Source: Cephalotus follicularis
Lineage: Eukaryota > Streptophyta > Magnoliopsida > Oxalidales > Cephalotaceae
DNA length: 64,000 bases
Assembly: GCA_001972305.1 (NCBI GenBank)
Contig: BDDD01001642.1
Coordinates: 62,001 to 126,000, forward strand
Direction: 5' to 3'
Positions within the stretch are counted from its first letter, which is position 1; every line of letters starts with the position of its first letter. Shown in pieces: positions 1,946 through 55,840 of this stretch. The notes beneath the pieces were generated by a model. That model was given only the letters and a program-made list of their open reading frames with translations, was not told the DNA's origin and searched no databases. The translations under genes were made by a program, and so were the position numbers.

Positions 1946-1978
1946 TTACTTCAGTTTAGTAAACAGTTTTGGAGAAAC
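1946..1978 (-). CDS. QCR6: QCR6 exon 4 (last coding exon)
   Basis: Minus strand reads [10 protein letters not shown] followed by TAA, the family C-terminus (APKLFAKLK type). The acceptor AG is plus-strand CT at 1979-1980. It follows an 83-bp intron (1979-2061), a normal plant size, which contrasts with the giant upstream intron. Confidence 0.88.
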   Translation of the reverse strand, partial: VSPKLFTKLK

Positions 1979-4900
1979 CTGCATTCCCAAATGACAAATT
2001 TCAGGTCATCAGTAAAGTCTAGATGCCAAATCATTAAAAAAATCATGTAAAGACAACTTACACATTTATCAACACAAGACAAGTAGTCAAAATACTGTCC
2101 AGTACAGTGCTTGTGCCCACTGCCATCCACTTCAATCCTCTTAACACATGCCTGTATTGAGGAGAATAGAATCGAACTTCAATGGAAAAAGAGGTTATAT
2201 CCTTGCTAAAAACAAATTCTATTGGTCGTAAATTTGTAATCTGGCATTTCAATGCCGCAGTCACCACTTAAAGATACGGTTTCAAAATCTGACAAATGCA
2301 CAAATATTCCAAATATGTATTGGAGCCTACAATAATCAACATCCATAAAATATGTCATCAGCTCATCAAATGATATTGTAAATTAAGCACCCAAAACTCG
2401 AGTAAAGCAATTAATTGTTATATGCCCCGCTAAAAGAAAAGGAATCAAGAAACTAATAGTATCTACTACATGTTTTTATATCACAATTTATAATAACCAA
2501 TGGTAATCAAAAGAATAGTATAGTTGAATCTTAAGTACATACTGATTCCAAATCAGTTGTATTCGAAATTATCCTGCCCTGGTTACATACCTTCATATGT
2601 AACATTATGTGACCTTTCCCTTAATTATGTCTATTTACTTCATCAATATCACTGTTCAAATTAAAAAAAAAAATTTGAAATCCGTCTCCCATCTTGTCAT
2701 CTTATAAACCGTCTCCCATCCTCTGTATTGAATGGAGTTGTTCCTTATACTCTTCTTCATCCTGGTCAGCCTCTCTAGTTAGTTCGTCCCCGAGTATTTG
2801 GGTGTGTTTGCTTGGTTCATTCCTTGGACCCTGGTATTGATAAGCTGCCCCCTCATGCAGAAAAGTGTGTTTGTTGGTCACTCTCGAACTCAAAAATGAT
2901 ATGTTTGTTACAGTCCGCGTCAACGTTGGGTGTCTGTGTCTGCTGATGAGACATTTTTTTAGGACAACCTATTACACTACAGAGTCTCAGCCAGAACCTT
3001 CAACAATGCATCTTTTTCTTCCTCCCGCTGTTTCTCAGCCAGGACAAAAGCCTCTGTAGGTGTACTCACGTAGACTTCGGTCAATTCCAGAGTCAATTGA
3101 TACTCCACAACAATACGACCCACCACCACTGACTATTGTCTCCGATTCATCTGCTCCTGAGTCACCAATTGATCACCGTACATGTTCCCATAAAAGTACC
3201 TAATATCCTCTTTCAGACTTTGTTTCTTATAATAATCTGTCTCCCGATTTGTTTGCCTTTGTGTCGTCCCTTTCTTGTATGTCTGTGCCTAATAGTGTGC
3301 AGGAAGCTCTAACTCATCCTGGATGGACCTGTGCTATGGAATGTGAAATGGCTGCGTTACATACCAACAAAACCTGGGATCTTGCCCTTTACCATCTAGC
3401 AAGCAGTTAGTTGGGTGTTGTTGGGTCTTTATGGCCAAGCATCATCCTGATGGCATAGTGGAACGATTAAAGGCCGGTCTTGTTGCTAAAAGATATACTC
3501 AGACATATGGTGTTGATTATGATGAAACTTTCTCTTAGTTGGCTAAAATTCCCTATGTTCTTATTCTTATATCGTTGGCTGCTCGGTTCCATCGGCCTTT
3601 ACACCAGTTGGATGTGAAAAATGCCTTCCTACGTGGTGATCTTTATGATGAGGTTTACGTGGAGCAACCCCCCGGGTTTGTTGCTCAGGATGAGATGGTT
3701 TGCAAATTGCGAAGGCTCTATATAGTTTGAAGCAATCTCTTCGTGCTTGGTTTGGAAGATTTAGTGATGCTATGGTTAACTTTGGTATGGGTCAATGTAG
3801 TGTGGATCACTTAGTATGTAGTATGTCATCTTCTGCTGGGTGTATTCTTCTACTAGTTTATGTAGATGATATTATTGTTACTGGAAGTGATGTTAGCGTG
3901 TGTTTAGTACTAAAGATCTGGGTCGGTTACGTTATTTTCTGGGCATTGAGGTTGCATATTCTAGTGTTGGTATTGCTCTTCTCAAAAAAAGTATTCTCTT
4001 GACATCTTAGGGGATGTAGGGCTCGTGATTGTAATACTAGGGAACTCCTATGGATCCTTTTGTGAAACTTGATAATGAGCAAAGTGATCTTCTACATGAT
4101 CCTGAGAAATATCGACAATTAGTTGGCAAATTGAATTATCTTACCATTACTCGTCCAAATGTTTCTTTTACTGTTTGTGTGGCAAGTCAGTTTATGAGTA
4201 TTCCTCGTACTCATTGGCAGGCAATTCTTCAAATTATAAAATACTTGAAAGGAGCTCCTGGTCAAGGCCTTACACTTCGAGATCCAGGGCATCTTAATAT
4301 ATTTGGATATTCTTATCCAGACTCTTTGGAGTTGTAGGCCACTCGAATGTTGATTGGGCAGGGAGTCCTATTTATCGTCGTTCTACTTCAGGTTATTGTA
4401 TTTTTCTTTGAGGAAATCTTGTATCATGAAAGAGCAAGAAACAGTGCATAGTTAGTGTTGAGGTTGAATATCGGGCTATGACTAATATAACATGAGAAGT
4501 GCAATGGGTACGAATGTTATTGGCTGAGATTGGATTGCCCATGAAAGGGTCGTCTACCCTCCATTGTGATAATCAATCAGCTATGCACATTGCCAACAAT
4601 CCTATCTTTCATGAGCGAACAAAGCATGTTGAAGTAGATTGTCATTTTGTTCGTGAGAAAGTAAAGTGTGGAGATGTTCAACTAATTCAAACAAGATTTA
4701 AAGAACAGTTAACTGATATGTTTACAAAACCTCTTCGGCATGGTCTTATTTCATATATTTGCAATAAGTTAGGCCTTTTCGATATGTATGCCCCAACTTG
4801 AGGTAGAGTGTTATTGTTATTTGTATTTATCTTTTATTATTTAGTTGCAAGTTTAGGCCAGATATAGGAGATAAGCCCATATTTATTGAGGGTCCTAACA

Positions 4901-7900
4901 AGTACCTATATATAGCGATGATATCCTAATAATAAAATTAAGCAATTCATTATCAGTTACACCCACAACTCTCTCAACAGGACCACTCTCGTGGTGGTCA
5001 GGGTTAGCCTCCAGAGCCTCTGCACGAACCCCCAACAGTCCCAAGCTAGTGACCAAATGTTCTTGGTTGTCCTGAATGGTTCTGAGTTGCTCACCAAGCT
5101 CTATTAATAAATTGTCACACTCGGTTTCAGTCATGGGATGACCCTTATGAGATGCTCCACTATGAGTAGACAATATGAGTCCGAAATGAATCTTATTTGA
5201 AATGCTATACAATAAAATGAATGAATGTGCTAAAGATATTCCGAAAGACCAATTCAAACAACGAATTAATAAAATGCACAAATGAGAAAATGCAAACACT
5301 TTAAATTGAGGGTATTAGGGAATGGTTCAAAGCGCTCCTAGAAAGAAATTCTACCTGTAGAAATCTTCCAAAGAGTATCCAACAAAAAAAAAAGGCTCAA
5401 TGATTATAATTGGAAATCCCTATATATTTTTAGAGTGTTTTTTTTAAGCTGGGTCAAAATTCAAGTAAGTTAGAGTACGCTGATCTGGTGAGTAGAGTAA
5501 CAACTGAAACATTGATGACAACGTAGATGAAAAACTGACAAAAAGTCGCAGCTACGCCGAACAAAGTACGACGGCACGTGTAGTGTAACGACCCGAACTC
5601 ATTTGTATTATTTACTGTATGCTCGTTACCACGTGTACCTACTTGTATTTGTGGATTTGAGTATTTTATACTAATCCTATTTATATTTGATGAGCATGCG
5701 TATTATTATTTTATTCTGGTCTGTTACGTTTGAACTTCGGTATATCAGGCCGCTATTGTTGTAGCCATTTAAACTTACCATGGCTGGCCCCCACCTTACA
5801 TCATTGTGCAAATCATATTCTATCCTCTCAATATTTCAACTTCTCCCCGTAGCCACATGTTCAGATTTCTCGTCTCCTTACCCCTACTCAACTAACCAAC
5901 ACATGCACCAACTCTTACACTTAGCACACAACAGACACAAATATCTCCTAAAATCCTATAACTCACCCGTACACCACACCCTTAACTTCCCTTATCATTA
6001 TGTCTCCCACTTGCATACTAATGCCCTCATATTACAAAACAACTCATATATATATATGTCGTGCCTACCCAACCATAAAAGAGGGGGTTTGAAGCTTCAA
6101 TCTGCTACTATAACACAACAATTACACATCATCTACATCCTTGAAGATTGGAACTAGTGGGGACCCTTGCACTTGATTCCAATCTCACTTTACTGCTGTT
6201 TTGGTCACAAAAAGCTTCTAAGTGTTACGTTGAATTTCTCTACCTAAAATGCTACTGATTATGCACTATTTTACTTGTATAATTGATTGGTATGGAATGG
6301 ACTGACTTGATGTTGTTTGGTTGAAAATGCTAGTTTTAGGTTTTGTATGCTTAATGACCTAAAATTGGAACTCGGATTAAACAATGGATTCAATGGATGA
6401 AAACATGTTTATTGAACCCTAATAAACATATATGAACTACTAAAATCGGTGGAAAATGACTTGGTATGAATTTGGATTGGAAATGGCCTAACTGCATAAA
6501 CTGGTACAACTACTGCCAGTTTAAGCGTTGCCGCTTGTCCTATAAACGTCACCGCTTAGAGATGTTTATGCTAGGAAATATGACGAACACGATCAAAACG
6601 CCAGCGCTTTGATTCTAAGCGCTGACAGTTTGATATTGAGCGTTGATGCTTAATACCTTCGCCTCTTAACGTGGCTTCGTCTGGGGGCAAAGCGCTGCCG
6701 ACAATGCTAAGCGTGGATATGGGCACTGACCTATAAGCGTCGCCGCTTAGTCTAATGGTCGCCGCTTGGAGCGCCTCTCACAGGACTGAACTTAAGGCCC
6801 AAAGCGTTGCCGCTTTCAATGAAAGCGTCGCTGCTTAAGGTATTGTTTTTGCTACCTAAACTGATTTCAATCCTTTTCAAAACAACTGCTTGACCGGATC
6901 AATTCTTGAGATTACTCGAGCCTTTTCAACTGTTTTCTCTCTGGTTAGGAGCTCACGCTGATCTTTCTGCAGATCATTCGATTGTGTACCACTTTCGTTT
7001 GACACGATGGGCTAACCGATCCGTCCGACCACTAGATGGCTTGTCTAGTTGATCTGACCGCAGTATTATCATCAAACGAATCGTGGTGTTGAACGACGAA
7101 ATAGTCGTGTTGAGGATTGAGTGACTGATTGAGACCATGGATACATCAGTGATTCCCTAGTCGGGGTCGCGTGCTATTCACGCCGATTAGGTATCCGTTA
7201 CTTAGTGGTTAATGATATTGTCACCGACTGTTATTGACTTTGATTGTTTGACTAACTACAACATAGGTCCTTAGCGATTTCTAATTGGGCCAGCCATAAG
7301 AGGACTTTATGTCTATCTGTTCCCCCTGATAGATCTTCGTCGCCTATTGACTTAATACTGTGAACATGTACTTGACTTGTATCGACTTGATTTGATTGTT
7401 CCTATTAGAGCAACCTCGCGACTCTAGTCGGGATGCGAGATGACCGTTTTTACCGTCTACTCTCCCTGATTGGATCGTCACCAGCCTTCAGCTGTATTAC
7501 TTGACTTGATTCCCTCCGGTGGTACCTATCACTGTGAACACACTTGATGGTACCTACCGTCGCGTGCACGATGACTCCTGATCATTTGAAGAGGACCTAG
7601 TGGCACTTATCCCCACGTATGCACACCCGTGGTACCTATGTGTTCAGCTGGTACCTATCACTAAGTAGGCTCTTAGCTAGTACCTACCACTAAGTAGGCC
7701 TAGTAAGTTTAATCTATTGATTTGATTCTACTGGGCCGGTCTAGCCGTCAACTCTTCAGTACTACCCTCCGGAGGTTAGATTCCCATTCTACTTGACTTA
7801 ACATGACATGACTTGTACAGATATGAGGTTACACGCTCTATGGGATTCACTTGATTTGATTGGATTTGATCGAAGTGTTTTCACACTCTGCTATGGATTA

Positions 7901-10900
7901 CTATTGATTGACTGCTAGATTAATGATAGGACTTATATTAGATCCTACTCCTATACACCGGTATGGGACGTTTGTATACAACTGGTAGATCACAGCAGTC
8001 ATTCATGCATTCTTATATGCCATGCATTATTACTGTACACTTGATGCTTGTTAATGTTCACTCGCACATTTATATCACACTACATACATGTATATAGCAT
8101 AATCTGCGCATAGGGATATATATATTTGGCCCTATGGCTGACCCCTCCTTCAAGATGGGAATCTACGTGTTTTCAGGTGACGCTGAAGGGACCAATTCTC
8201 AAGGAGACTGCTAGTTCCTACTCTTCCGCTCATAGACTTGAAGACCGTAAGAACCGGACCTTATGCTATTTTCTTATGCTTTGTTTTGCTGCATGTATCA
8301 TGATGTGTTGATTTGGACTAAGTGATGTACTTATTTGGGATTGTAATATTTAAGGAGTTCTTGTATTACATTAAGTACATTACTCATGCATGTAATAAAA
8401 GTTTTAATTTATCTTCCTTTTTAATATGGTACCTAAGCCCGAATACTGTATATGATTTGTACGTGACGCTACCGGGCCTCCGGGCACTGGACGTCACATT
8501 TGGTATCAAAGACAATGTCAGCCTGCTATGTTAAGTATTAAACTGTAGTGATAGATGCTTTTAAACGTTTTTTGCTATGACTCTAACATTTTCCCGTAAT
8601 AAGGTAGATTATGGACGACAGAGCAAAACGTGGCAGCTCTGTTCATGAGAACGTGATCCCAGAGTATGATCCTAATGATCCACCTCGGGGAGCTGACCCC
8701 GAAGTTTGGAGGCAAGTATGTGCCACCATGGCACAGATGAGGAACTTGATGGGTCACAAAGCAGAGACAGCTGAGCGAAGCCTGCGGAGAGACAGTTAGC
8801 TGAACCGGTTTCTGAAATTATAGCCACCAGCCTTTCTGGGACTACCAGATCCTATTGTAAGAGAGTATTGGCTACTCCAGATAGAGAAAATCGTCCAAGT
8901 CTTGGATTGCGATGATGAGCAGAAGTTGATCCTATCTGCTTATATGTTGCAAGGAGAAGCCGAACACTGGTGGGCAATGGTTGATACGGAGTGGACTAGG
9001 AATGGTACAGTTCGCTCATGGACCACAATTTCAGGCTGAATTCAATGCTCATTACTTCCCTCAAGATCAAAAAGATAGGAGAGAGATTGAGTTCGCTAAT
9101 ATGGTACAGGGGACCATGTACGTTATAGAATATGAGTCCAGATTCATACAATTGTCCCATTCTGCTCCGTACTTAGTGGAAGGGCAAGGACGGCGAGCGA
9201 AGAAGTTTATTCGCGGATTGAGGATCGACTTGCGGAGATAGTTGGCCACTTTCAATTTAACTTCTATCACGGATATTGCTACTCAGAGTAGACAACTTGA
9301 GGAGCTTGCCGAGGAGAGCCGGCAAATGAAGAGAAACAAAGCTAACACTCAACCAGCACCACCTTCTTGGTAGGGTAGCGGCAGTGGTACCGATAGTGAC
9401 AAATCGCAGAAGACAGATAGCAGTGATTCTCCGGGTTCACAGAGTAGCAATCCTTCCAGTGGTAGGAACCAGTCACGGACCTCAAGGAGGCGTAGCCAAT
9501 CACGGAGTCTCGTCAAGGCAACAGGTCTAGGGGATCTGGTCAGGGCAACCCCTACCGATACTCTAATACAGGCAATCAGGGTTCCCCATCTTTGTGTATG
9601 CATTGCAACAAGTCTAACCACTCCTCAGATAATTGCAGATGGTTCTTGGGCCTTCGTACAGTTTGTGGAGCCAATGATCATTTCACTATAGACTGTACTC
9701 GAAGTAATTTTCGTAGAAGAACAACACAAACTCCACAGCCCCAGGCATCTCAGGGAAAGACTTATCAGGGACAACATGGAGTGCACCGTCAACTTCTCAT
9801 GGGGCTTCTTAGTCCAAAGGGAAGCAGGTTGCAAGTTCTAACCCGACCGTGCAGGCCAGAGTCTTCTCCATGGATTCAGGTACTATTGTTGGTTCTACTA
9901 CAGTGACTGGAGGTATTCTCTAACTTTTTCAACTTTCGACGCAGGTCGTTATTGATCCGGGCTCATCCCATTCATTCACTGCAGCACAAATTGTCCTTAA
10001 CTTGGGTCTGAGACCTGACTATTTACCTTTCCTCATGGAGGTTAGTACACCTATCGGTGAGGCTTCTACCGCCGATTGAGTGTGTCGAGACTATTTACTG
10101 GAGATTGACGGTCGTCGCTTGCAAGCCAACCTAATTGTTCTCCCCAAGCAGTGTAAGCCCCAGATTTTTATATGTACGGACTGGTATGCATTATTGTTTG
10201 TACTTATATGGTATTGTACAATATTGTATTGATGAATAGTATGGATTGTATATGATATAAACTATTTTTCACTTCTATGTCTGTTTATGGGTAGTGGAGG
10301 TTCAGTAGAACCTGATCGTAGCTTGTATGATTTTCGCTTAAAGGGAACCTATTTCTATATATAGGCGGTTCAGTTCTTTCTATTCTCATTCCCATTTCTC
10401 ATTCCATTCTAGAGAGAGAGTGAGTTAGAGAGAGAAAGTGGGCGGAATCAAGCAAACAAGGTGTCTTTGGGATCGTGGCAGTGTATAGAACCTGAAGAGA
10501 TAAGCAGAACGAAGATTTAAACAACATATTCTCCGTTCTTAGCCAAATTTAAGGTAGGTTCTACAAAAGCTTTGATCTCAACATCGTGATGATTTTGTTT
10601 GATATTATGGTTATGGATAGTTGTATACATGCTATATGGATGAACCAGGGTATTTGTTATGGTTAAAAAGGATCAATATGGGAATCAGGGAGAGAATTTA
10701 GAGTTTTAGGTTTATAGGCCTAATCTCTTCTCTCTCTAGATTTACGGATTACGGGTATGGATCTGAAGAATTAAAGTTGTTTTTAACTTACTATCGACCT
10801 TAGGGGCATATAGCTGCCTTTGGATCAATTTAAAAGGATTGAAATGGTTTTAAAATGAATTTTACAGTGGATTTGACGAGCTGCTTGCTGCTGTCAAACC

Positions 10901-34900: not shown

Positions 34901-37900
34901 TCAACTCTTGGCATTTGGGGTGGTATTTGAACCTACTCCCACTGACAGGGTGTAGGAGCTGGGAAAGAAAATCCATACCTAAGACAAAGAGATAAGGAGA
35001 GAGGGGGTCTCCTTGTCTTAACCCCCGTTTTCCCGAGAAAAAACCGTGTAAGGATCCATTTATCACCACCGAAAACATCGGATTAGTAAGACATTGTCGG
35101 ATCCAAGTAACAAAATTCCTTGGACAACCAACCTTCATCAACATAGACAGGACAAAGTTCCAATCCATGGTATCATAGGCTTTGTGTATATCTACTTTGA
35201 TAGCACATCTAGCAGCACCTCTGTTGGAATGGTAGCCTTTGAGAATCTCTTGTGCTAAAAGGACATTATCCTTTATATTCCTGCCCTTAATAAAAGCTGA
35301 CTGAGATGGATTAATGAGATCTTGGAGGACATACTTCAGTCTATTTGCTAAGATTTTTGCAATGGTCTTGTAGAGAAAATTACAGCAAGAGATTGGTCGG
35401 AATTCTCCCATTGTCTCCGGAGTTTTCACTATAGGAATAAGAGCTAGAATGGTAGCATTAATACACTGTGGCATATAACCAGTTGCAAAGAAGTCTATAA
35501 TTGCATCAATGCAATATTCTCCCACCAGGCTCCAAGCTGCCCTGTAAAAAAACCCGTTATAACCATCCGAACCAGGGGCTTTGTTAGGGTTTAGAGACCA
35601 CATGGCGTCTTTCACTTCCTGTCTAAAAATAGGACTACCCAGGGTCCTCACTTGCTCCCCTGTGATCCGCTTATCATACTTAGATAGGTTGTAGGAGCCT
35701 GCTTCCTGATTCAAAGACCCAAAGATATTTGTGAAGTAATTTACAGCCACTTGGGCAATACCCACTTCGCTCTCCACCCAAACCCCATCGTCACCTTTAA
35801 TTCTCACAAGGTGATTCTTCGACTGTCTTACCTTGACCATTTTGTGGAAGTAAGCTGTGTTAGAGTCCCCTTCTTTCAGCCATTGGATTCTCGATTTTTG
35901 TTTGTAGAAAGCTTCCTCCATTCTTGCTGCCTGCCCGACCTCTGTCCTTAGCTCTTTTTCTTTGGCTACCACACTTGGATCAGTGACCCCACTCTTCAAG
36001 GCATGCTGAACCGAGTGAAGACAAGATCTTAGATCCTTAACTTTTGAATCCGGTCTTGTGCCAAGCCCCCGCAATAGCCCTTTAAGGCTTTTGAGTTTTT
36101 TGTGGATAACTTCCAGAGGGGAACCAGAGAAAGGCATATCCCAGACCTGCTTGACTATCGCCAGAAACCTGCAATCTTCGGTCCAGAAATTTAGGAACTT
36201 AAAGGGTCTCCCTCTGTAAGGCTGTCTATCTCTCATTTGAATAGAAATCGGAGAATGATCCGATATCCCAGGAGGGTAATACATGGCGTATGCATCCCCT
36301 GCCATATTAAACCACCACCAGTTGCCCAAAGCTCTGTCAAGCTTCTTTGATATGGCTTCCGAACCCCCTCTCATATTGCTCCAGGTGAAGTGGAACCCCA
36401 CACCCCTCAAATCCTCCAACTCAGCTTTAGTAATAGCATTGTTAAACTCGTGCATTGCCTTTGTCACCCTTCCACTAGCACTGTGTTCACCGCCATATCT
36501 AGTGACGTTAAAGTCACCTAGCACTGCCCAAGGATTATTTCTAAACCGATCAGCACAATGGTTTAGATCGTCCCAGAGAGATAATCTAGCCTTTCTGTCA
36601 CACATCCCATATACATAAGAAACAAAAAAGTTTCTATTATTAGCAAGAGTCACCTGTCCATGTATAGCCTGCTCGTTTACATAGACGGGGTCAAAATGCA
36701 AAAGGGAAGAGTCCCACATCACAACTATTCTTCCCGACATAGATACACTGCAATTGGAAACAAAACACCATCTCTTATTGATACTTCTAGCCACAAATTC
36801 CAGGTTATGTATTCTTACCCTAGACTCCAAAATGCCAAGCAAGGAAATGCTATTGGAGCTAATGAAAGCCCTAATCTCATTTTGCTTTGAGGGGTCATTC
36901 AAGCCCCTCACATTCCAAGCAGCAAAACTATTCATTTGGATGAGCGGGATACCCCTAGGCCCTCCCGGCCTTTCTTCTTTTTCTTCTTGTGCCCACTTGG
37001 GCCTCCAGGCAGTATGATTCTAGGATATTCACCTAACCTTCCCTCACTGTCTTCAGTACCTTCCACTCCACCAGGAGCGTCACCAACTGCTTCAAATGTA
37101 TTATGGGCCAAGATACCCGGTGGTTTCTTAACAGGAGTTATAGGAGCCTGCTTCATAACTTCCTTCCCCGGACCTAGTTCTTCCCCTAAAGGATGCTCTT
37201 CCAGCCAGTTGTGTTCTTGAGCCTGATCTTGATTGCTCCCTTTTCTCTTTACCGTAATCCATCCTTCAGCATCATCCGGCTTTCTCTGTGCCAATACCAC
37301 CGGTTTAGGCATCCATTCCCTCCTCGCTGCTTTTGGACAGGTCTTATTTGAATGATCAAAAACTTTGCATAGAGTGCATGAGGCAGGCCGTCAAGGATAC
37401 TCAACTCCTATATTTGTCGTGGTTCCATCCTCAAGCTCGAGAACTATATTGTCGGGGAAGGTGCTAGTAGCTTCCATATCGATACAAACACGTGCAAAAG
37501 ATAATGCATGTCTATTAGTGGTGTTTGCATCCATGTGTAGAGGTTTTCCAAGAACACTTGCAATAAAACTTCAACCTAGCTTTGTCCAGTACTGTACTGG
37601 GATTTTAGTTAGCTTTACCCATATAGGTATCGTCTTACAATCCTCCAAAGCCATTACCATGTCTTTGCTCCATTTTCTCACTGCCAAATGGTAGCCCCAA
37701 ACATCCCACGGACCATTTTCCAGGACCCAATCCCTGGCCTGTCCATTGGCAAATTTCACCAAGAATACCCCATTGCCATGAATAGAGAAATGACCCACCT
37801 GACTCCATTTCCTTTCAAGGACGCTTTTCACACTGTTCCCAGGAAGTCTTTTCCCCACAAGGAAAGCCACAATTGAATTCTCCCACTCCTCAGCCCCTTT

Positions 37901-40900
37901 AACAGCCACTTCCGGGGGGGGTTTCGCCCGTAGAACGCCATCCACAAGAATAGGTTGGAAGAACTCCAAAGATGAGTCCGGATTTTTGGTAGGAGCAAAA
38001 AGGTTTTTCCAAGGCTGAGTCGATGATGGCTGGCTAGGTGATGAAACTGTTTCACTGTGCCCCACAGTCTCTTTACCTTTCCCCGGTACGGCTATATCTG
38101 GTACAGACTTCCCGGTCTGAATGGCATCACTATTTTTGCCAGGGACTCCCGTGACCGGCGCTGCTATTTCAACATTTTCTGGAGCCATACTCGAGACATC
38201 CTCTGCATCTATGGCCGCCGCACATACATGGGCTACAAACCCATCTGTCCAGGACGAGTTAGTCCTTTCGTTCTCACCAGATGAGCCGGACACTTGAGTT
38301 CTATCCACCAGCAGAGCTTGCGTCTCCGGAACCATGGACACTTGGGATATTTCCCCTTCTTCGACGACAGGGGGTGGAGAGGTAGGGTTTCTTTCACAGG
38401 CAGGCGGATCGCATGAGTTCGTGGCTCCAGCGACTTTAGGGCTTTCACCAACTGGATCGACACTTAGAGGCGCCATCAACGGAGAAGGAAGATCCGGTAT
38501 ACGGAGGGAGCTACGTAGTGCTCGGGCGGGTTTCATGAAGACCCACCAAGACAAGGGAGAGCAGAAGGCTAGAGGAGGATAGAGAGAAAAAAAAGGGGGA
38601 AGACGAAGGAGAAAGAAAGGAAGGCTAGGCGAGAGCAGAGAGACGGAGAGGAAGGCAAGGGAGCGGGAAAGTTAGAGAGAAGGGAGAGTTTCTCTGACTA
38701 ACCCATAGTGTTCCAATCCTCCTATATGAATTGGAGATCAGAAATTTAAGGCACAAAGAAATAGTGAGTGAGTAGTGGTTAATGATATTGTCACCAACTA
38801 TTATTGACTTTGATTGTTTGTCTAACTACAACATAGGTGCTTAGCAATTTCTCATCGGGCCGGCCATAAGTGGACTTTATGCCTACCTGTTCCCCCTGAT
38901 AGATCTCCGCCGCTTATTGACTTGTACTGTGGACATGTACTTGAGTTGTATCAACTTTATTTGATTGTTCCTATTAGAGCTACCTAGCGACTCTAGTTGG
39001 GATGCGAGATGACCGTTTTTACAGTCTACTCTCCCTAATTGGATCGTCATCAGCCTTCGGCTGTATTACTTGACTTGATTCCCTCTGGTGGTACCTACCA
39101 CTGTGAGCACACTTGATGGTACCTACCGTTGCATGCACGATGACTCCTGACCATTTGAAAATGCAGCTGGTGGCACTCGTCCCCACGTATGCACACGGTT
39201 GGTACCTATCACTGTGTTATGTGTTCAGATGGTACCTACCACTGAGTAGGCTCTTAGCTGGTACCTACCACTGAGTAGGCTCTTAGCTGGTACCTACCAC
39301 TGAGTAGGCTCTTAGCTGGTACCTACCACTGAGTAGGCTCTTAACTGGTACCTACCACCTAGTAGGTTTAATCTATTGATTTAAATCTACTGGGCCGGTC
39401 TAGCTGTCCACTCTTCAGAACTACTCTCCAGGGGTTAGATTGTCATTCTACTTGACTTGACTAGACTTGTACAGATATGAGGTCACACGCTTTATGGGAT
39501 TCACTTGACTTGATTGGTTTTGATCAGAGTGTTTTCACACTCTGCTATGGATTACTATTGATTGTCTGCTAGATGATTGATATGACTTATATTAGATCCC
39601 ACTCCTATACACTGGTATGCGACGGTTGTATACGACTGGTAGATCACAACTGGCATTCATGCATTCTTATATTTCATGCATTATTATTGTACACTTGATA
39701 CTTGGTAATGTTCACTCGCACATTTATATCACACCTCATACGTGTATATAGCATAATCTGCGCATGGGAATATATCTATTTGGCCCTATGACTAACCCCT
39801 CCTTCGGAATGGGGATCTACGTGTTTTCAGGTGACGCTGCAGGAACCAGTTCTCAAGGAGACTACTAGTTCCTACTCTTCCGCTCATAGACTTGAAGACC
39901 ATAAGGACCGAACCTTATGCTATTTTCTTATGCTTTGTTTTGCTGCATGTATCGTGATGTGTTGATTTGGACCAAGTGATGTACTTATTTGGGATTGTAA
40001 TATTTAAGGAGTTCTTCTGTTACATTAAGTACATTACTCAAGCTTGTAATAAAAGTTTTAATTTATCCTGCTTTTTAATATGGTACCTAGGCCCGACTAC
40101 TGTATATTATTTGTACGTGACGCGACGCGATCAGACCTCCAGGCGCGGGACGTCACATGTACTATAGCGGTGCCAGATGGCGTCAAACAGAGGCGAGATT
40201 CCCAAGTTTTCTAGATCTGGCGCCGACGATTCAAATGGTATGGCATGTGCCTCGATATGACGCCTGGAGCAGCATAGATATGAGATCTCTAGTCGTGACT
40301 TTAGTTGCGTTTTTGGCGGCTCGACGGCAAGGACAACGAGACTGTTGTGAACGAGGGTCAATCAACTTTGAGGAAGTCATCCAGTGGTGGTCAAGCTCCT
40401 GATGGTGGACGAAAATTGTACGATGATGGTTCAAGGGTATGGTGCGGCTGACAGTGCGATTCTAGGTGAAGGTCAGACAATGCTTAGAACCTCATCCGGT
40501 GGTGATCTCAGCTCCTGACAACGATTGGATAGTAAATGGAGAGATATGAGGATCCAAAGGGATGAAGACCTGTGTTGTTTGTGTTGTATTTTTCTTTTCT
40601 TTTTTGACTCTTTTGTTTGTTTTTTTAATCTAATCTGCCCATATCTCCCACAAACTAAGAAATTTGTGGAGAAACCAGGGCTCTGATACCAAATATGATG
40701 CCAAACAATAGGGTTTGTCAAAATTCGATAGTATCAGTTTGCAATTGTGTTCCCCTTAACACACATAAATAGGAAAACACAGGGGTAAAAAGGGAAACTG
40801 CAACATGATCCAAATAAACCTACTAATACACGAAAATAAATAAAAATGGCAATCCTATGGTTGACGACGACCACCATGAGTCCTAATGGTAGCCCCATCT

Positions 40901-41387
40901 TTAGGAGTCTAACCTAGCTTATTTATCTCTTTAATTTTATTTTCTTGCTCTCTCTATACTACCAAAAAGATCTGATTTCTTTTCTGTTTTACACATTCGG
41001 TTCGGCCCTTAACATTAAAACAAAACCCTAATTAGTATACTAAAATCCCACAATAAAATTCTCTGCCACATAAATCCCACCATGTAAACACTAGCAGCCA
41101 GCATATTAAATCTGCCCCTAGCTGTCCAGCATCAGTAAGTTGCACTATAGTGGTATAAGGATTCTTGAAATTCAATGGTTTTTTTAGCTATTGAACATTA
41201 TCTAAAAAATCTCAATGCCCAGAGATGGGAGAGGATATCTAGAATGGAATGACATATAAAAGCCATGAACTTGAAACATGATGTTATGGAAAGCTGCTTC
41301 ACCTGGTATTCCCTTAAAGGCTTCACACATTTAGGCTGGCAAGAGTCCTCAAGATACTGTTTTTGGTCAACGAGCTCCTCGTCTGAC
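1946..41387 (-). CDS. QCR6: complex III hinge protein (QCR6/UCRH), spliced, with a ~39-kb intron
   Basis: This subunit is the small acidic hinge protein of the cytochrome bc1 complex in the mitochondrial inner membrane, facing the intermembrane space and helping cytochrome c1 interact with cytochrome c. Coding is join(complement(41303-41387), complement(2062-2151), complement(1946-1978)). Exon 2 gives [16 protein letters not shown]...REYQ, exon 3 gives ACVKRIE...[12 protein letters not shown]...CVDKC, exon 4 gives [10 protein letters not shown] and stop. With an initiator Met the product is about 69 residues, the usual plant length. Six cysteines of the family are present. Splice sites are intact: CAG|GTGAAG, polypyrimidine-ACAG|GC, TGT|GTAAGT, TGCAG|GTT. 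Codon phase is preserved at both visible junctions and there is no frameshift or stop. Oddities: the intron at 2152-41302 is 39,151 bp, and the usual Trp in YFDYW is Leu. The initiator-codon exon is not resolved. Family identity is very secure; function of this copy is likely but unproven. Confidence 0.88.
2062..2151 (-). CDS. QCR6: QCR6 exon 3
   Basis: Exactly 90 bp, 30 codons, beginning ACVKRIE and ending CVDKC. It holds four of the six cysteines and the [12 protein letters not shown] signature. The acceptor is a pyrimidine tract ending ACAG (2152-2155) and the donor is GTAAGT, a perfect plant consensus. Both borders fall between codons. Trp is replaced by Leu after YFDY (TTG instead of TGG). 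Confidence 0.9.
2152..2689. other. 3' end of the giant QCR6 intron, host-like sequence
   Basis: AT-rich sequence between the exon 3 acceptor and the first recognisable transposon. The minus-strand reading shows a normal polypyrimidine stretch just before exon 3. A 12-bp CCGTCTCCCATC is repeated at about 2681 and 2708, next to the truncation point of the copia fragment, which could be a junction repair trace. Confidence 0.5.
2709..4801 (+). pseudogene. copia pol remnant: integrase C-term, RT, RNase H
   Basis: Integrase tail around 2709-2990 (PSSVLNG ... RVFGC ... [12 protein letters not shown] type). RT begins near 3300 with QEALTHPGW and continues with [12 protein letters not shown] and [11 protein letters not shown]-type residues at 3607-3680. 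The RT active site LVYVDDIIV is intact at 3855-3881. RNase H shows [13 protein letters not shown] (4564-4602), [16 protein letters not shown], and the terminal LTDMFTKPL motif near 4710. Several stops (one at 3536-3538) and frame changes separate these blocks, so no polyprotein can be made. Confidence 0.88.
4809..4979 (+). repeat. copia 3' LTR, ~171 bp
   Basis: Starts TGTTATTG directly after a purine-rich AGGTAGAG tract and ends CTCAACA. It holds a TATA-like TATATATAG (about 4910) and an AATAAAA poly(A) motif (about 4932). Length and content fit a compact copia LTR. The right end is inferred from the CA dinucleotide only. Confidence 0.65.
4980..5583 (-). other. unassigned intron segment with a short minus-strand frame
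   Basis: From the ATG at 5134 the minus strand reads [20 protein letters not shown] and continues in a gag-like, coiled-coil-like style up to exactly the copia LTR border, where it is cut. This could be the start of gag of an older minus-strand LTR element whose 5' LTR would be 40696-41135, split by element A. The rest up to 5583 is leader-like and non-coding. I do not recognise the peptide; the link is a guess supported by orientation and position. Confidence 0.25.
5584..8498 (+). repeat. element A 5' LTR (2915 bp)
   Basis: Matches the 3' LTR that starts at 31415 along its whole length. Notable parts: a dinucleotide ATATAT block near 6045; a cluster of short GCGTYGCCGCTTA-type words at 6520-6840; two copies of a 29-bp TGGTACCTATCACTAAGTAGG-type unit near 7650-7705, which is amplified in the 3' LTR. 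The site TAGTGGTTAATGAT at 7203-7216 is the uninterrupted counterpart of the LINE E target. The 125-codon frame at 5780-6157 lies inside the LTR and is not credible as a gene. Confidence 0.88.
8501..8512 (+). promoter_or_regulatory. element A primer-binding site
   Basis: TGGTATCAAAGA, two bases after the LTR end. It differs by one base from the TGGTATCAGAGC complement of the initiator tRNA-Met 3' end that most plant LTR elements use. Confidence 0.75.
8611..9906 (+). pseudogene. element A gag, broken
   Basis: ATG at 8611 begins [20 protein letters not shown]; a TAG stops this frame at 8797-8799. Capsid sequence resumes with a [18 protein letters not shown]-type block (about 8930-8985), then shifts frame to [18 protein letters not shown] and [13 protein letters not shown] (8981-9241). 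Zinc knuckle C-X2-C-X4-H-X4-C follows at 9593-9634; a second one is damaged (first Cys gone). At least two frame changes and several stops. The role was the virus-like particle shell and RNA packaging. Confidence 0.82.
9940..10152 (+). pseudogene. element A protease, 5' half, cut by element B
   Basis: Reads [10 protein letters not shown], the aspartic protease active-site segment of this gypsy group (D-P-G-S form), then [12 protein letters not shown] and a stop, ending at LIVLPKQ. The next codons, [12 protein letters not shown], lie beyond element B at 19172 onward. The two halves are in the same phase across the target duplication. Confidence 0.82.
10153..12486 (+). repeat. element B 5' LTR (2334 bp)
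   Basis: TATATATA at 10356-10363, then a pyrimidine-rich and GA-rich start region. A potential 5' splice site AAGGTAGGTTCT lies near 10551. At 10870-11090 there is a dense array of GTCGACGCTT words. The 3' end carries the TTCGGGGCGTGACA terminus shared with C. Frames within it (for example 11404-11586) are not genes. Confidence 0.88.
12490..12502 (+). promoter_or_regulatory. element B primer-binding site
   Basis: TGGTATCAGATCC three bases after the LTR end. One mismatch from the usual tRNA-Met PBS TGGTATCAGAGCC. Confidence 0.8.
12676..13965 (+). pseudogene. element B gag, broken
   Basis: ATG at 12676 begins MEGRRGAK, then TGA at 12700-12702, then an open stretch to the [16 protein letters not shown] block (about 13020-13065). 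A frame change near 13100-13190 leads to the capsid part with [18 protein letters not shown] and [17 protein letters not shown] (13191-13880). The SG-rich linker is followed by knuckle [14 protein letters not shown]; a TGA in place of a Trp or Arg codon ends the frame at 13878-13880, and a second knuckle [14 protein letters not shown] follows in another frame. Confidence 0.85.
14083..15960 (+). pseudogene. element B protease-RT-RNase H, one stop
   Basis: Long well-preserved block. Protease: [16 protein letters not shown] near 14228, then [38 protein letters not shown], then TGA at 14926-14928 where an Arg codon (CGA) is expected, then [27 protein letters not shown] and the active site FLDDILVYS (15214-15240). 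RNase [14 protein letters not shown] and THDLELAAI. Frame is continuous apart from that TGA up to 15915, where TAG replaces TGG. A short region after YHQL start ([10 protein letters not shown]) looks shortened. Best-preserved gypsy pol in the giant intron. Confidence 0.88.
15961..16686 (+). pseudogene. element B integrase remnant with core deleted
   Basis: The N-terminal zinc region stops at [10 protein letters not shown]-type sequence (about 16230) and continues at once with sequence equivalent to element C 27051 onward ([15 protein letters not shown]). The C-terminal module is intact at 16390-16686: [20 protein letters not shown] to VKVL. By alignment with C about 680 bp, including the whole D,D-35-E catalytic core, is missing, with microhomology AGT at the junction. 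B could not integrate itself without help. Confidence 0.82.
16805..19170 (+). repeat. element B 3' LTR (2366 bp)
   Basis: Preceded by the polypurine tract TTTAAGGAGGGGAGGA (16789-16804). Same features as the 5' LTR: TATA-like block near 17009, GTAGGTTCT donor near 17205, GTCGACGCTT array at 17540-17800, GGGGCGTGACA end. Visibly diverged from its partner by scattered substitutions and small indels, so B is not recent. Confidence 0.88.
19171..20130 (+). pseudogene. element A protease 3' end and RT
   Basis: Resumes [20 protein letters not shown] after element B. RT from about 19430: [51 protein letters not shown] frame change after 19860 precedes [14 protein letters not shown]. The active site is FIDNILVYS, so the second catalytic Asp is Asn. 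RT ends at [14 protein letters not shown], where RNase H is missing: the next codons already belong to integrase. Confidence 0.85.
20131..20433 (+). pseudogene. element A integrase zinc domain, cut by element C
   Basis: Sequence jumps from the RT end into [16 protein letters not shown], then the HHCC module [16 protein letters not shown] ... [14 protein letters not shown] and EWKWKHI. The RNase H domain and tether (about 1 kb in relatives) are deleted at about 20132. The coding continues after element C with [10 protein letters not shown]; the target duplication is ATATT / ATATC. Confidence 0.85.
20434..22673 (+). repeat. element C 5' LTR (2240 bp)
   Basis: TATATATA-containing GAGTATATATAGG at 20611-20623, then TC-rich and GA-rich tracts. 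Potential donor TTAGGTAGGTTCTATA near 20812. Array of CGTCGACGCTT words at 21160-21280. End TTCGAGGCGTGACA. Confidence 0.88.
22682..22694 (+). promoter_or_regulatory. element C primer-binding site, displaced
   Basis: TGATATCAGAGCC, one base from the standard PBS. It lies 9 bases after the LTR end instead of 2-3, so a short insertion separates it from the LTR. Confidence 0.6.
22836..24094 (+). pseudogene. element C gag, broken
   Basis: Aligned with B, the initiator codon is AAG instead of ATG (about 22836-22838). The reading continues [15 protein letters not shown], a basic N-terminus, then [13 protein letters not shown] and TAG at 23038-23040. The block [20 protein letters not shown] leads to the capsid (23155-23388), followed by frame changes; [14 protein letters not shown]-type sequence is near 23550. 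Zinc knuckle [14 protein letters not shown] is intact at 24027-24068; the other has lost its Cys pattern ([14 protein letters not shown]). Confidence 0.82.
24240..25500 (+). pseudogene. element C protease and RT, broken
   Basis: Protease reads [13 protein letters not shown] (DPGS changed to DQGS), then a stop and frame change near 24490-24540 before [40 protein letters not shown], frame change at 25010-25130, [36 protein letters not shown] and FINDILVYS (first catalytic Asp is Asn). A TAG replaces TGG after NKCEF at 25477-25479. Confidence 0.82.
25583..26160 (+). pseudogene. element C RNase H and tether
   Basis: [20 protein letters not shown], then RNase H with [19 protein letters not shown] and [20 protein letters not shown]. 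The normal SDAS is SDVS. A one-base change near 26015 alters the frame; the tether [21 protein letters not shown] follows. Confidence 0.82.
26256..27991 (+). pseudogene. element C integrase, interrupted by solo LTR D
   Basis: HHCC module [20 protein letters not shown] ... [13 protein letters not shown] (26360-26510). Catalytic core has all three acidic residues: first Asp in [11 protein letters not shown] (26625), second in [10 protein letters not shown] (26750), Glu in DGQSERTIQ (26862), but stops and shifts separate them (for example at 26709 and 26923). The C-terminal module [20 protein letters not shown] is cut after IAY by D (27315-27773) and continues [15 protein letters not shown] to VKVF at 27991. 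Confidence 0.85.
27315..27773 (+). mobile_element. element D: solo LTR of a copia element, nested in C
   Basis: 459 bp beginning TGCTGAGG and ending CGTTCA, bounded by a perfect 5-bp duplication CCTAC (27310-27314 and 27774-27778). Inside: TATATATATTCTC TATA region near 27576, GTGGACGTAG-like R region (CTGGACGTAGCCCCAGATTG near 27657) and AACCAGGATAAATCTTGTG, a pattern common in copia LTRs. GC-rich GGGGTTCGGGGG words at 27362-27460. No internal region remains, so it formed by LTR-LTR recombination. Third nesting level (D in C in A in the QCR6 intron). Confidence 0.85.
28110..30337 (+). repeat. element C 3' LTR (2228 bp)
   Basis: Preceded by the polypurine tract TAAGGAGGGGAGGG (28096-28109). 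Same layout as the 5' LTR, including TATATATA near 28272, GTAGGTTCTATATATA near 28487 and the CGTCGACGCTT array at 28835-28950. An AT dinucleotide stretch at 28556-28577 is longer than in the 5' LTR. Confidence 0.88.
30343..31380 (+). pseudogene. element A integrase core and C-terminus
   Basis: Continues from 20433: [20 protein letters not shown], then [10 protein letters not shown] where family members have VDRL, so the first catalytic Asp is lost. SDIGSRF keeps the second Asp and DGLSERTIQ keeps the Glu. Stops at 30514 and 30813 and shifts occur. The C-terminal module from 31009 is open: [35 protein letters not shown], ending [10 protein letters not shown] at 31380. I see no clear chromodomain after it. 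Confidence 0.85.
31398..31414 (+). promoter_or_regulatory. element A polypurine tract
   Basis: Purine-rich run TTAAAAGGAGAGGAGAA directly before the TGTAACGACC start of the 3' LTR; primes plus-strand DNA synthesis in LTR elements. Confidence 0.75.
33115..33344 (-). other. LINE 3' UTR and poly(A) tail
   Basis: Short 210-nt untranslated region after the ORF2 stop, ending in an uninterrupted A run (on the minus strand). The unbroken tail suggests limited age. Confidence 0.85.
33345..36935 (-). CDS. LINE ORF2: endonuclease-reverse transcriptase, 1196 aa, intact
   Basis: Nicks target DNA and reverse-transcribes the LINE RNA at the nick. Start is ATG at 36935 ([13 protein letters not shown]). Residues 1-235: APE-type endonuclease with WNVRGLN, GILESRV, VLGDFN and SDHSPI. 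Residues about 490-760: RT with [42 protein letters not shown] (first catalytic Asp), [13 protein letters not shown] and CYADDLLLF (catalytic YADD). Near residue 1010-1100: zf-RVT-like module [14 protein letters not shown] ... [18 protein letters not shown]. No RNase H is evident. The ATG overlaps the ORF1 stop as ATGA. No stop or frameshift in 3.6 kb, exceptional in this window. Confidence 0.95.
36932..38536 (-). pseudogene. LINE ORF1 (DUF4283 + zinc knuckle), two in-frame stops
   Basis: RNA-binding protein of plant L1 elements. ATG at 38536 ([14 protein letters not shown]); an upstream TTG-initiated reading is not needed. A low-complexity Pro/Ser/Glu-rich N-terminal half is followed by a DUF4283-like domain ([16 protein letters not shown] ... 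[20 protein letters not shown]) at about 37860-37640. TGA at 37571-37573 follows VQYWTKLG and a second TGA follows VEYP near 37395, where Trp is expected. Then [14 protein letters not shown], a C-X2-C-X4-H-X4-C knuckle, and a basic Lys-rich tail to the stop at 36932-36934. No frameshift: the frame is continuous apart from two UGA codons. Confidence 0.88.
38537..38772 (-). promoter_or_regulatory. LINE 5' UTR
   Basis: About 235 nt, strongly pyrimidine-rich on the element's strand, from the upstream TSD to the ORF1 ATG. L1-type LINEs carry an internal promoter here; no specific motif is recognised. Confidence 0.6.
39230..39345 (+). repeat. 29-bp tandem repeat inside element A 3' LTR
   Basis: Four near-perfect units starting at 39230, 39259, 39288 and 39317 plus a partial one at 39346. 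Each contains the KpnI-like word GGTACC, as TGGTACCTACCACTGAGTAG then GCTCTTAGC. The 5' LTR has only about two units (near 7650-7705). The LTRs were identical at insertion, so the difference arose afterwards by slippage or unequal exchange. Confidence 0.88.
40158..40695 (-). other. leader of an older minus-strand LTR element (inferred)
   Basis: Directly after the minus-strand LTR, the sequence TTGGTATCAGAGCC (plus 40678-40691) is a perfect tRNA-Met-type primer-binding site. Downstream on the minus strand the DNA is leader-like with no long frame and is cut by element A at 40157. GC content is higher than the surrounding intron. May continue at 5583 going down. Confidence 0.5.
40696..41135 (-). 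repeat. 5' LTR of an older minus-strand retrotransposon
   Basis: 440 bp with terminal inverted words TGATGC ... GCATCA, followed (minus strand) after a TAT spacer by the PBS TTGGTATCAGAGCC. It contains CAAACTGATACTATCGAA and a CCTATTTATGTGTG block near its 3' side, as in many copia LTRs. No partner LTR is found in the window, so the class is undecided. It ends 167 bp from QCR6 exon 2. Confidence 0.6.
41303..41387 (-). CDS. QCR6: QCR6 exon 2
   Basis: Minus strand encodes [20 protein letters not shown] followed by VKPLREYQ, the N-terminal half of the hinge protein. Donor CAG|GTGAAG at 41302-41301. The acceptor may be ATTAG|G (exon from 41387, Met split AT|G) or GTCAG|AC (exon from 41382). A polypyrimidine-containing stretch precedes both. 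Confidence 0.88.
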
Positions 41388-43210
41388 CTAATTTTAAAAG
41401 TGATGCACGCATAATTAGGAGATAGATTAGCTTGAAATGAAAGAAAAAGCATTCAATAACAGAAACTCATATAACTTTAATATTGATTAAAAAAATTTAA
41501 TCACATTTGGTTACCCATGTGTGTGCGAGTGTGTAAAAGATAATAACGAGCAAGTAGGGAATTTATAAAATAATGAATCACACCAATACCAGATTCTACA
41601 TAAACATTTTAAGCAGTACTAGAGGCCTACAAATAAACAATAGTCCCCCAATAGGTGGATTACACGATGGTGTTAACTCTAACCTCCCATAATCCTCCCA
41701 TTCTTGGGTGATGGCTGAATTAAAACCCCTTGTATCCACACCAAAAGATTTTAACAGCTAACTAGCTGGAACCTTTTATGAGATATGATTTGAGTAATAG
41801 TTAAGAAGTGTAATCACATGATTAACTAATTTCTATTTCTTCTTTTGGCCAATGAGAAGAACTAACACATACACACTCATAAACACAAGGGGAATGGAGA
41901 GAGATAGGCATATATAACTTCTACAAAACACACCAATTATAAAAGCTAACTTAATTCCTTATTAATAAAGCAAATATGAAATCTTTCATGAAGAGGAAGG
42001 GGATATATTCAATACTGAAATCATTCACAGATTTGGTGGAACGGAAGCACCAAGAAAATAATAGTTATTCCACAATTTATATTCCTTATCTACAATAGCA
42101 CTTCATTCTTTGGGAATAAATGCTTTGACCACAACTTATATTATGCCTCTCACATGCACACACTATACATAACACGAGTTAATAAAAAGTACAAATAGGA
42201 AGGAGTGTTAATCAACTATGCATCCCATGCACATGAAAATGAAAACAATTATGACTCTGCCTAAGTTAATAACCACAATTTTAATTTAACATAGAACGGT
42301 AGTATGATCATAATTACTATTTTATGTTAATCACTAGTTTATGGATAAATGGGATTTTTTTTTATGATACACTTGTCTATGATCTTGTCGTATGAACCTG
42401 GGATAAACATTGTAAAAGTTGCAACTTCTAAATCTACCAACAAAACACCACAACCTACCCAAAACCATGGTCCTTCAGTATGATCTTAATTAGATTGTTA
42501 CGAATCCCACATTGGAAATGAAAGTCAATGGATGTGGATATATAAGAACCTCTTGAACTAGCTTTTGGGATTGGTTCTTCCAAATGTATGATAATAGAAA
42601 CGATTATTACGCAAAATCATTATATTACCACAGTCAAATAAATAAATAACTGTAATTGATTAATATAAAAATGCTGACCAAAATGGCCACCATACTCACA
42701 TGGAGACAAAAGTGCTGTAATAACTAACTCAATGCGAAAAGGTACCTTCCTGCACACACCATACAATGATTCAACATAAGATTAACAACTGAAACAAATA
42801 TTAAAATTTCATATTTATTGTTTTTTTTATCATACTGATATTTATAACATATAGATATTAACCTTTCAGATTTTTTTTAAGGATTTTCGTATTTATTGTT
42901 TTTTTTATCTTACTGATATTTATAACATATAGATATTAACCTTTCATATTTTTTTTAAGGATTTTCGTAATGATGATTTCAAATATCAATTTCTGATACT
43001 AGGTTTCCTTGTTAAGATTTTATAAGATCCGATCAAAATGAAACATTCATTATCAGTTTTTCTTGATTAAAAAAACATATAGATAATTTTAACATATATT
43101 AAAACACAAAAGAAGATGAGCTACAAAACTAGAACACACAGATCCTTAATTTGAGTTATATAAAATCAGAAGATTGAGTGAATTAATAGAATGAGAATAA
43201 AGAACGGTAC
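41388..43210. other. presumed first intron / 5' region of QCR6, start codon not located
   Basis: AT-rich, no transposon recognised. The initiator exon should lie here or in the exon ending at 43211. One candidate on the minus strand is ATGG|GTAACC (ATG near 41518), which spliced to GTCAG|ACGAGG would give MDEELVDQ; no acceptor is visible just upstream of it. Another option is AT|GT at several sites. I could not decide. Confidence 0.3.
42813..42968. repeat. 78-bp direct tandem duplication
   Basis: Unit 42813-42890 is repeated at 42891-42968 with very few differences (for example ATCATACTG versus ATCTTACTG and CAGATTT versus CATATTT). It is AT-rich, in the 5' region of QCR6. Confidence 0.85.
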
Positions 43211-43290: not shown

Positions 43291-43297
43291 ATTACGA

Positions 43298-43347
43298 TGG
43301 GCTTTTACAGCTTATAACTAGTCACGCTCATTCTGTCATAGGGCCCA
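43298..43347 (-). promoter_or_regulatory. QCR6 promoter with paired Site II motifs
   Basis: Two Site II elements (TGGGCC/T): TGGGCC on the minus strand at 43347-43342 and TGGGCT on the plus strand at 43298-43303, 38 bp apart. Site II pairs are known from plant nuclear genes for mitochondrial respiratory components and are bound by TCP-type factors. Presence is seen; function is inferred from context. Confidence 0.55.
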
Positions 43348-44126: not shown

Positions 44127-44134
44127 ACTAGGAG

Positions 44135-55838: not shown

Positions 55839-55840
55839 AG

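What the first reader, a model, noticed from the sequence alone, without database searches (positions are those of the whole stretch)
1946..43347. A 69-residue respiratory gene with a 39-kb transposon-filled intron
Seen: exon 2 of a QCR6/hinge-protein gene at 41303-41387 and exons 3-4 at 2151-1946, all on the minus strand, with consensus splice sites and perfect codon phase. Nothing else of the gene is duplicated in the window. The intron 2152-41302 is 39,151 bp and holds at least seven retroelement insertions. Known: plant introns are usually short, and long heterochromatic introns in Arabidopsis need the IBM2/EDM2/ASI1 machinery for full-length transcription (IBM1 and RPP7 cases). Inference: this constitutive housekeeping gene now depends on splicing across a heterochromatic block, or has become a low-output allele. 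I think this is the most interesting object in the window.
Basis: partly seen in the sequence, partly recalled or inferred. Interest (0 to 1): 0.9.

Follow-up and report, generated by a model that had tools for sequence, protein, structure and literature searches.

The report
Small respiratory gene with transposon-swollen intron
A tiny plant gene for a respiratory-chain subunit is interrupted by a 39,151-base intron that is mostly one old retrotransposon with three others nested inside it; the gene looks intact, but very long transposon-filled introns are already known in plants, and this appears to be a second-copy gene rather than the plant's only one.

Summary
On the minus strand, exons 41387-41303, 2151-2062 and 1978-1946, with a start codon split AT|G before the donor at 42699, splice to a complete 69-residue QCR6/hinge protein (Pfam UCR_hinge 1.2e-21; best PDB match Arabidopsis QCR6-1). 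Intron 2 is 39,151 bp. I resolve six retroelement units, not seven: an inferred sense-strand LTR element (E2), split by Ty3/gypsy element D (5584-40157), which holds gypsy elements B and C and a LINE, plus a Copia fragment. About 0.8 kb of intron lies outside them. LTR divergences (D 0.106, C 0.099, B 0.086) fit the nesting. Transitions at CG and CHG are twice those at CHH, a footprint of past methylation, also seen in an element outside the gene. The protein groups, with moderate support, with a divergent rosid QCR6 paralogue; 6 of 15 species with that type also showed a canonical copy, so a backup copy is likely. Published work reports plant introns over 100 kb, and most methylated Arabidopsis introns do not need methylation for full-length transcripts. 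Expression, methylation and the second copy could not be tested. Verdict: a real, well-preserved example of a known kind.

The parts
43298..43347 (-). Promoter region with two site-II-like motifs (TGGGCC at 43347-43342; TGGGCT on the + strand at 43298-43303)
   Evidence: Motif scan, (41 such hexamers in the whole window, both strands); site II elements in over 80% of complex I, III, IV and V genes per PMC3884152 (passages read). Function inferred.
42702..42749 (-). Likely 5'UTR part of exon 1, after a GTGCAG acceptor; a further upstream UTR exon is possible
   Evidence: Sequence; inferred, no transcript evidence
42700..42701 (-). First two bases (AT) of the start codon, before donor GTGAGT
41388..42699 (-). 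Intron 1, 1312 bp
41303..41387 (-). Exon 2: third base of start codon and residues 2-29
2152..41302 (-). Intron 2, 39,151 bp
40158..41060 (-). E2 right part: sense-oriented LTR (end near 40696; start about 41060 by eye), PBS-like TGGTATCAGAGCC 40691-40679, leader; one A-rich signal at 40943-40941
   Evidence: no second LTR found; inferred
4850..5583 (-). E2 left part: gag-like reading frame (no Pfam match), other side of D
   Evidence: inferred, limits by eye
5584..40157 (+). D: Ty3/gypsy element, LTRs 5584-8498 and 31415-40157 (the latter split by the LINE); 5-bp TSD TGTAG/TGTAC (4 of 5)
   Evidence: gag and SH3_Tf2-1 domains; RT and Integrase_H2C2 in 19184-20574
10152..19170 (+). B: Ty3/gypsy element inside D's protease region, LTRs 10152-12486 and 16805-19170; TSD AGCAG/TGCAA (3 of 5)
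20434..30337 (+). C: Ty3/gypsy element inside D's integrase region, LTRs 20434-22673 and 28110-30337; TSD ATATT/ATATC (4 of 5)
33118..38772 (-). LINE in D's 3' LTR, sense-oriented, poly(A) tail, target duplication of at least 14 bp; ORF2 33345-37016 open over 1,223 codons
2679..4800 (+). E1: truncated Copia fragment (integrase end, RT; RNase H part by eye)
   Evidence: RVT_2 1.2e-12 and 2.6e-8; SH3_retrovirus 4.1e-6; the RNase H frame had no Pfam match
2062..2151 (-). Exon 3: residues 30-59
1979..2061 (-). Intron 3, 83 bp
1946..1978 (-). Exon 4: residues 60-69 and stop

Best explanation
This is an intact nuclear gene for the divergent ('a-type', my label) paralogue of complex III subunit QCR6 in a rosid plant. 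Its second intron, perhaps 0.8 kb originally, grew by stepwise retroelement insertion: a sense-oriented LTR element (E2) and a Copia fragment (E1), then one gypsy element D into E2, then gypsy elements B and C and a LINE into D. The gene most likely still works in the ordinary way: RNA polymerase II crosses about 41 kb and the spliceosome joins exon 2 to exon 3 across a methylated intron, with some transcripts lost to premature poly(A) sites, and the canonical QCR6 paralogue supplies the same subunit. Shown: gene anatomy, reading frame, splice borders, nesting of B, C and the LINE in D, methylation-decay footprint. Inferred: E2 and its splitting by D, transcription, splicing, present methylation, presence of the second copy.
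For: Complete 69-aa frame with GT-AG borders, Pfam and PDB matches, conserved intron position. Nesting: LTR pairs and ends; the two flanks of B meet on B's own protease region, and the two flanks of C on C's own integrase region, each with exactly a 5-base overlap. K2P D 0.106, C 0.099, B 0.086, order as nesting demands. CG 104/917 and CHG 85/763 versus CHH 239/4239 transitions, Fisher 2.9e-9 and 8.4e-8. Promoter-side site-II-like motifs. Paralogue type: 45-row tree, window with the five Rosaceae a-type rows at 85/77. Residue rarity is not exceptional: 4 rare residues, and 33 of 120 homologues have 4 or more.
Against: No transcript evidence. The open frame says little: under neutrality since D's insertion it would survive with probability about 0.16-0.21 (0.12-0.35 over the whole range tried). 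No protein above 85% identity was among the best 120 listed of 222 hits, so no annotated or transcript-derived copy of this protein was seen. The window's branch is rather long (0.19), and S61 occurs in none of the 119 homologues with a residue there (in the larger set only in P0144, whose model seems to run on into an intron). The a-type assignment is moderate: the 17-row fork is 83/84, drawn open and holds some W53 rows, and a tree with the window outside the a-types is not rejected (p-AU 0.091).
Confidence: 0.66

Rival explanations
1. Decaying paralogue: the intron growth reflects relaxed selection, the gene makes mostly truncated transcripts ending in the sense LTR or LINE, and the canonical QCR6 copy does the work.
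For: A canonical copy is seen in 6 of 15 species with the a-type; frame intactness is compatible with neutrality (P 0.16-0.21); an A-rich signal about 360 bases into the intron in the inferred sense LTR; rice genes with heterochromatic introns are generally lower expressed, though the effect is small (r 0.046; PMC7145194, passages read).
Against: All coding exons, the six splice dinucleotides of the three introns, start and stop are intact; residue rarity is not exceptional; a-type copies are kept in 15 rosid species seen.
Confidence: 0.24
2. Heterochromatin-gated gene: full-length QCR6 mRNA depends on IBM2/EDM2/ASI1-type factors masking the sense LTR poly(A) site.
For: Similar anatomy to RPP7/COPIA-R7, where a 5' LTR in an intron acts as proximal poly(A) site held down by EDM2 and H3K9me2 (PMC7529245, passages read); methylation footprint in the intron.
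Against: For most of 109 Arabidopsis genes with mCHG introns, reduced methylation does not alter full-length transcripts (PMC11265718). The E2 LTR is inferred from its end, PBS-like site and leader only; its second LTR was not found. No chromatin data.
Confidence: 0.08
3. Assembly error or chance neighbourhood of two QCR6 halves from different loci.
For: Retroelement-rich stretch; both halves are short exons.
Against: D lies on both sides of B and C with exact 5-base overlaps and its LTRs bracket all; no exact direct repeat of 100 bp or more occurs in the window (inverted repeats not counted); exon 2 (Q18) and exon 3 (E36, L53) carry residues common among a-type copies; no exon is present twice.
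Confidence: 0.02

Closest known systems
TE-expanded introns of grapevine and Sapria himalayana
   Same: Grapevine introns enlarged mainly by repeats with LTR retrotransposons and LINEs (PMC3058033, passages); 23 Sapria genes with introns over 100 kb (PMC10246380, passages)
   Different: Here a 210-nt coding sequence (with stop) carries a 39-kb intron whose bulk traces to one primary insertion with nested ones; size is not a record
RPP7 / COPIA-R7 (EDM2-controlled alternative polyadenylation) in Arabidopsis
   Same: LTR element in an intron soon after an early exon, with an A-rich signal in the inferred sense LTR
   Different: RPP7 is an immune receptor gene with shown proximal poly(A) use (PMC7529245, passages); here a respiratory subunit, no transcript data, and a nested block
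IBM1 and PPD7 heterochromatic introns in Arabidopsis
   Same: Methylated intron within a gene (here methylation inferred from a decay footprint)
   Different: Dependence on methylation reported there (PMC11265718, passages), untested here
Canonical plant QCR6 (QCR6-1 of Arabidopsis complex III)
   Same: 69 aa, UCR_hinge, all six cysteines in place
   Different: Window protein has L53 and R26 where canonical copies mostly have W53 and L26

Membership tests
QCR6 / UCR_hinge family | Pfam UCR_hinge above the curated cut-off | tested here: met
   77 bits against cut-off 27.2
QCR6 / UCR_hinge family | Full-length match to solved plant complex III subunit | tested here: met
   8bel_H and 7jrg_H, 69/69 residues
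Divergent rosid QCR6 paralogue (a-type; label mine) | I26, E36, non-W53 and grouping in a tree | tested here: inconclusive
   E36 and L53 present, R26 instead of I26; 45-row tree 85/77 with five Rosaceae rows inside a fork of 83/84 that is drawn open; 35 hand-picked rows 96/98, p-AU 0.091 for excluding it
TE-expanded plant intron | Intron kept with canonical borders and made mostly of transposable elements | tested here: met
   Borders; D with its nested elements spans 34,574 of 39,151 bp. That the intron is spliced was not testable.
Heterochromatic intron | CG/CHG methylation and H3K9me2 in the intron today | not testable with these tools
   Only an indirect footprint: CG 104/917, CHG 85/763, CHH 239/4239 transitions
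IBM2/EDM2/ASI1-dependent gene | Loss of full-length transcript when the machinery is lost | not testable with these tools
   no transcript or mutant data
RPP7-like LTR-terminated transcript (ECL type) | Polyadenylation in an intronic sense LTR | not testable with these tools
   One A-rich signal at 40943-40941 in the inferred LTR (which scanned only 41302-40101)
Recursive (ratchet) splicing of a long intron | Juxtaposed acceptor-donor sites YAG|GTRAGN after a pyrimidine tract (motif recalled) | tested here: not met
   0 sense sites in 39,151 bp; 0 in the antisense control

The most novel reading that the evidence does not exclude
A nuclear respiratory-chain subunit has come under heterochromatin-gated RNA processing: a sense LTR within 0.4 kb after exon 2 offers a proximal poly(A) site, and intronic methylation decides how much full-length QCR6-a is made, tying a complex III paralogue to transposon silencing.
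Probability: 0.08. Interest if true: 0.65.

Novelty: new member of a known kind. Interest (0 to 1): 0.33.

Why it matters
It is a clean, datable case of how one retrotransposon insertion, then insertions into it, can lengthen an intron about 50-fold while leaving a housekeeping-type gene's frame and splice sites intact. If the transcripts were found to be gated by the intron's chromatin it would give a metabolic counterpart to IBM1 and RPP7. As it stands it illustrates tolerance of long introns, which is established.

Tried and rejected
Second QCR6 copy in the genome: the genome search 'own' was unanswered nine times, each the same request; my notebook entry already says nine although only eight had been made by then. 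Replaced by an indirect test with homologous proteins.

W53L, L26R and K18Q looked at first like decay; rejected, because non-W53 and (in Rosaceae) Q18 recur in a-type copies of other rosids and R26 occurs in 12 of 120 homologues.

Frame survival as proof of function: rejected, the simulation gave 0.16-0.21 at K 0.043-0.053 per lineage, and 0.12-0.35 over K 0.03-0.06, 4,000 runs each. Its settings (64% transitions, 85% of indels disabling, 5.5 indels per 100 substitutions, near the 4.7-6.7) are mine.

Ratchet splicing: no site. tRNA and Rfam (gathering threshold) scans: nothing. A paper search with QCR6, transposable element and intron found 0 papers; QCR6 with intron and plant gave 10, none on this by title (listing only).

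Species: not settled. QCR6 leans to Rosaceae; the LINE's best hit is Cephalotus follicularis, 65% over 56% of the query, while the other 119 listed of 242 are at 43% or less except P0255 (61% over 35%, species not shown).

E1 and E2 as one inverted element: considered, not resolved.
Full report
What is there. On the minus strand the window holds a complete QCR6 (complex III hinge) gene. Exons 41387-41303, 2151-2062 and 1978-1946, together with the AT of a split start codon at 42701-42700, give 69 codons and a stop with GT-AG borders. The protein scores 77 bits for UCR_hinge against a cut-off of 27.2 and matches Arabidopsis QCR6-1 and Vigna QCR6 over all 69 residues. A tblastn over the window finds no second piece of the gene (the 10-residue last exon itself has only E 0.03, the next match E 1.4). 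Two site-II-like motifs lie at 43298-43347, of 41 in the window; such motifs are reported in over 80% of the genes for complexes I, III, IV and V of Arabidopsis and rice (PMC3884152, passages).

Intron 2. It runs from 41302 to 2152, 39,151 bp. Self-comparison, ends and domains resolve it. D (5584-40157, plus strand) is a Ty3/gypsy element with LTRs of about 2.9-3.1 kb (the second split by a LINE), an A/G-rich tract before the 3' LTR and a TSD matching at 4 of 5 bases. B (10152-19170) sits in D's protease region and C (20434-30337) in its integrase region, both plus strand. The LINE (33118-38772, minus strand) sits in D's 3' LTR with a poly(A) tail and a target duplication of at least 14 bp. 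D itself sits in what I read as E2, a minus-strand LTR element whose LTR and primer-site-like stretch lie at about 41060-40679 and whose gag-like frame lies at about 5583-4850; E2's other LTR was not found and its gag-like frame has no Pfam match, so E2, and its being one element split by D, are inferred. A plus-strand Copia fragment E1 fills 2679 to about 4800 (RVT_2 and SH3_retrovirus matches; its RNase H part is by eye). The rest, about 0.53 kb by exon 3 and 0.24 kb by exon 2, is other intron sequence.

Nesting test. The pol regions of B and C serve as yardsticks. On B's internal region the sequence left of B ends at position 1947 (aligned to 1941 and 6 bases on) and that right of B resumes so that bases 19171-19175 fall on 1943-1947: a 5-base overlap, as a target duplication requires. 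On C's protease region the left alignment stops 30 bases short and the two flanks overlap by about 10 bases, so C is not an exact yardstick there. For the insertion of C, the left flank ends at 3887 of C's internal region and the right flank begins at 3883, again a 5-base overlap. So D is one element split by B and C. TSD letters match at 4/5 for D, 3/5 for B and 4/5 for C; alone these are weak. For D in E2 no yardstick was at hand.

Ages. K2P is 0.106 for D (2,876 sites, 180 transitions, 103 transversions), 0.099 for C (2,218 sites), 0.086 for B (2,270 sites) and 0.096 for an element outside the gene. Errors were not computed; by my own estimate they are near 0.006-0.007, so D and C are not clearly different. 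With rates of 1.3e-8 or 7e-9 per site and year (recalled), D would be about 4 or 8 million years old.

Methylation footprint. Pooled over D, B and C, transitions at cytosines (both strands) are 104 of 917 in CG, 85 of 763 in CHG and 239 of 4,239 in CHH; Fisher p 2.9e-9 and 8.4e-8. The outside element shows 27/238, 16/158 and 17/558. This suggests that the intronic copies were methylated over their lifetime much as a copy outside the gene was. It is indirect and says nothing of present chromatin; CpG observed/expected did not set the intron apart from the flanks (0.43-0.73 inside, 0.42-0.67 outside).

Which QCR6. Among 157 homologues from two searches (best 120 listed of 222 and of 162), 20 have a residue other than W at 53, and 16 of these have I26 (15 species); the other four are two grasses and two Drosera rows. 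Six of the 15 species also show a W53/L26 copy in the set: Malus domestica, Malus baccata, Prunus dulcis, Fragaria vesca, Ricinus communis, Carica papaya; for the other nine, not seeing one means little. The window protein has E36 and L53 but R26. In a 45-row tree it joins the five Rosaceae rows of this type at 85/77, inside a 17-row fork of 83/84 that is drawn open and also holds W53 rows of Ziziphus, Populus and Cynara. With ten ambiguous, partial or outlying rows dropped (34 of 44 proteins kept) the window plus a-types reach 96/98, but leaving the window out of them is not rejected, p-AU 0.091. I chose the dropped rows, so the second figure is flattering.

Does it work? The frame and splice sites are intact, but neutrality since D's insertion would leave them so with probability 0.16-0.21 (0.12-0.35 over all settings of K tried). 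Residue rarity is unremarkable: 4 rare residues, and 33 of 120 homologues have 4 or more; S61 occurs in none of 119 homologues there. No homologue listed exceeds 85% identity. In yeast, absence of Qcr6p did not affect complex assembly, though cytochrome c1 maturation was slowed and the reference list names a temperature-sensitive growth defect (PMC9502982, passages). So the gene need not be indispensable.

Long TE-filled introns are known: grapevine (PMC3058033, passages) and Sapria, with 23 genes having introns over 100 kb (PMC10246380, passages). In Arabidopsis most methylated long introns do not need methylation for full-length transcripts (PMC11265718, passages). In favour: intronic heterochromatin goes with lower expression in rice, with a small effect (PMC7145194, passages), and large-intron grapevine genes had fewer ESTs (PMC3058033); the inferred sense LTR after exon 2 resembles the RPP7/COPIA-R7 arrangement (PMC7529245, passages), with an A-rich signal at 40943-40941, though such hexamers are common by chance and no control was run.

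Verdict. Real and well resolved, a new member of a known kind. The missing facts are the second copy in this genome, junction reads and methylation; the genome search was unanswered nine times.

Noticed in passing
49062-64000: Upstream of the gene lies another apparently nested pair of plus-strand elements: a gypsy element (gag 49062, RT 52253, integrase 53828) that seems broken near 54874 by an LTR element with LTRs 54874-55838 and 62387-63378 (K2P 0.096).
   Followed up: partly
47268-47894: Minus-strand fragments similar to the LTRs of B and C (70-86% identity), probably a decayed LTR.
   Followed up: no
42807-42969: Two copies of an 85-bp repeat, 96% identical and overlapping by 7 bp at a spacing of 78, in the likely 5'UTR intron of the gene.
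   Followed up: no
33345-37016: LINE ORF2 open over 1,223 codons; best hit is a Cephalotus follicularis protein (65% over 56%), nearly all other listed hits 43% or less, a hint to the plant's lineage that does not agree with the QCR6 tree.
   Followed up: partly
homologues P0002, P0009, P0011, P0014, P0022, P0053, P0107, P0133 and others: Rosids carry a divergent QCR6 paralogue in which the usual tryptophan 53 is I, L, M or F; two grass rows show L53 and two Drosera rows Y53, apparently independently.
   Followed up: partly
800-1300 and 43500-44150: Two flanking stretches rich in repeated GGGGACGGGGA- and ACCCG-like motifs (by eye), possibly small DNA transposons.
   Followed up: no
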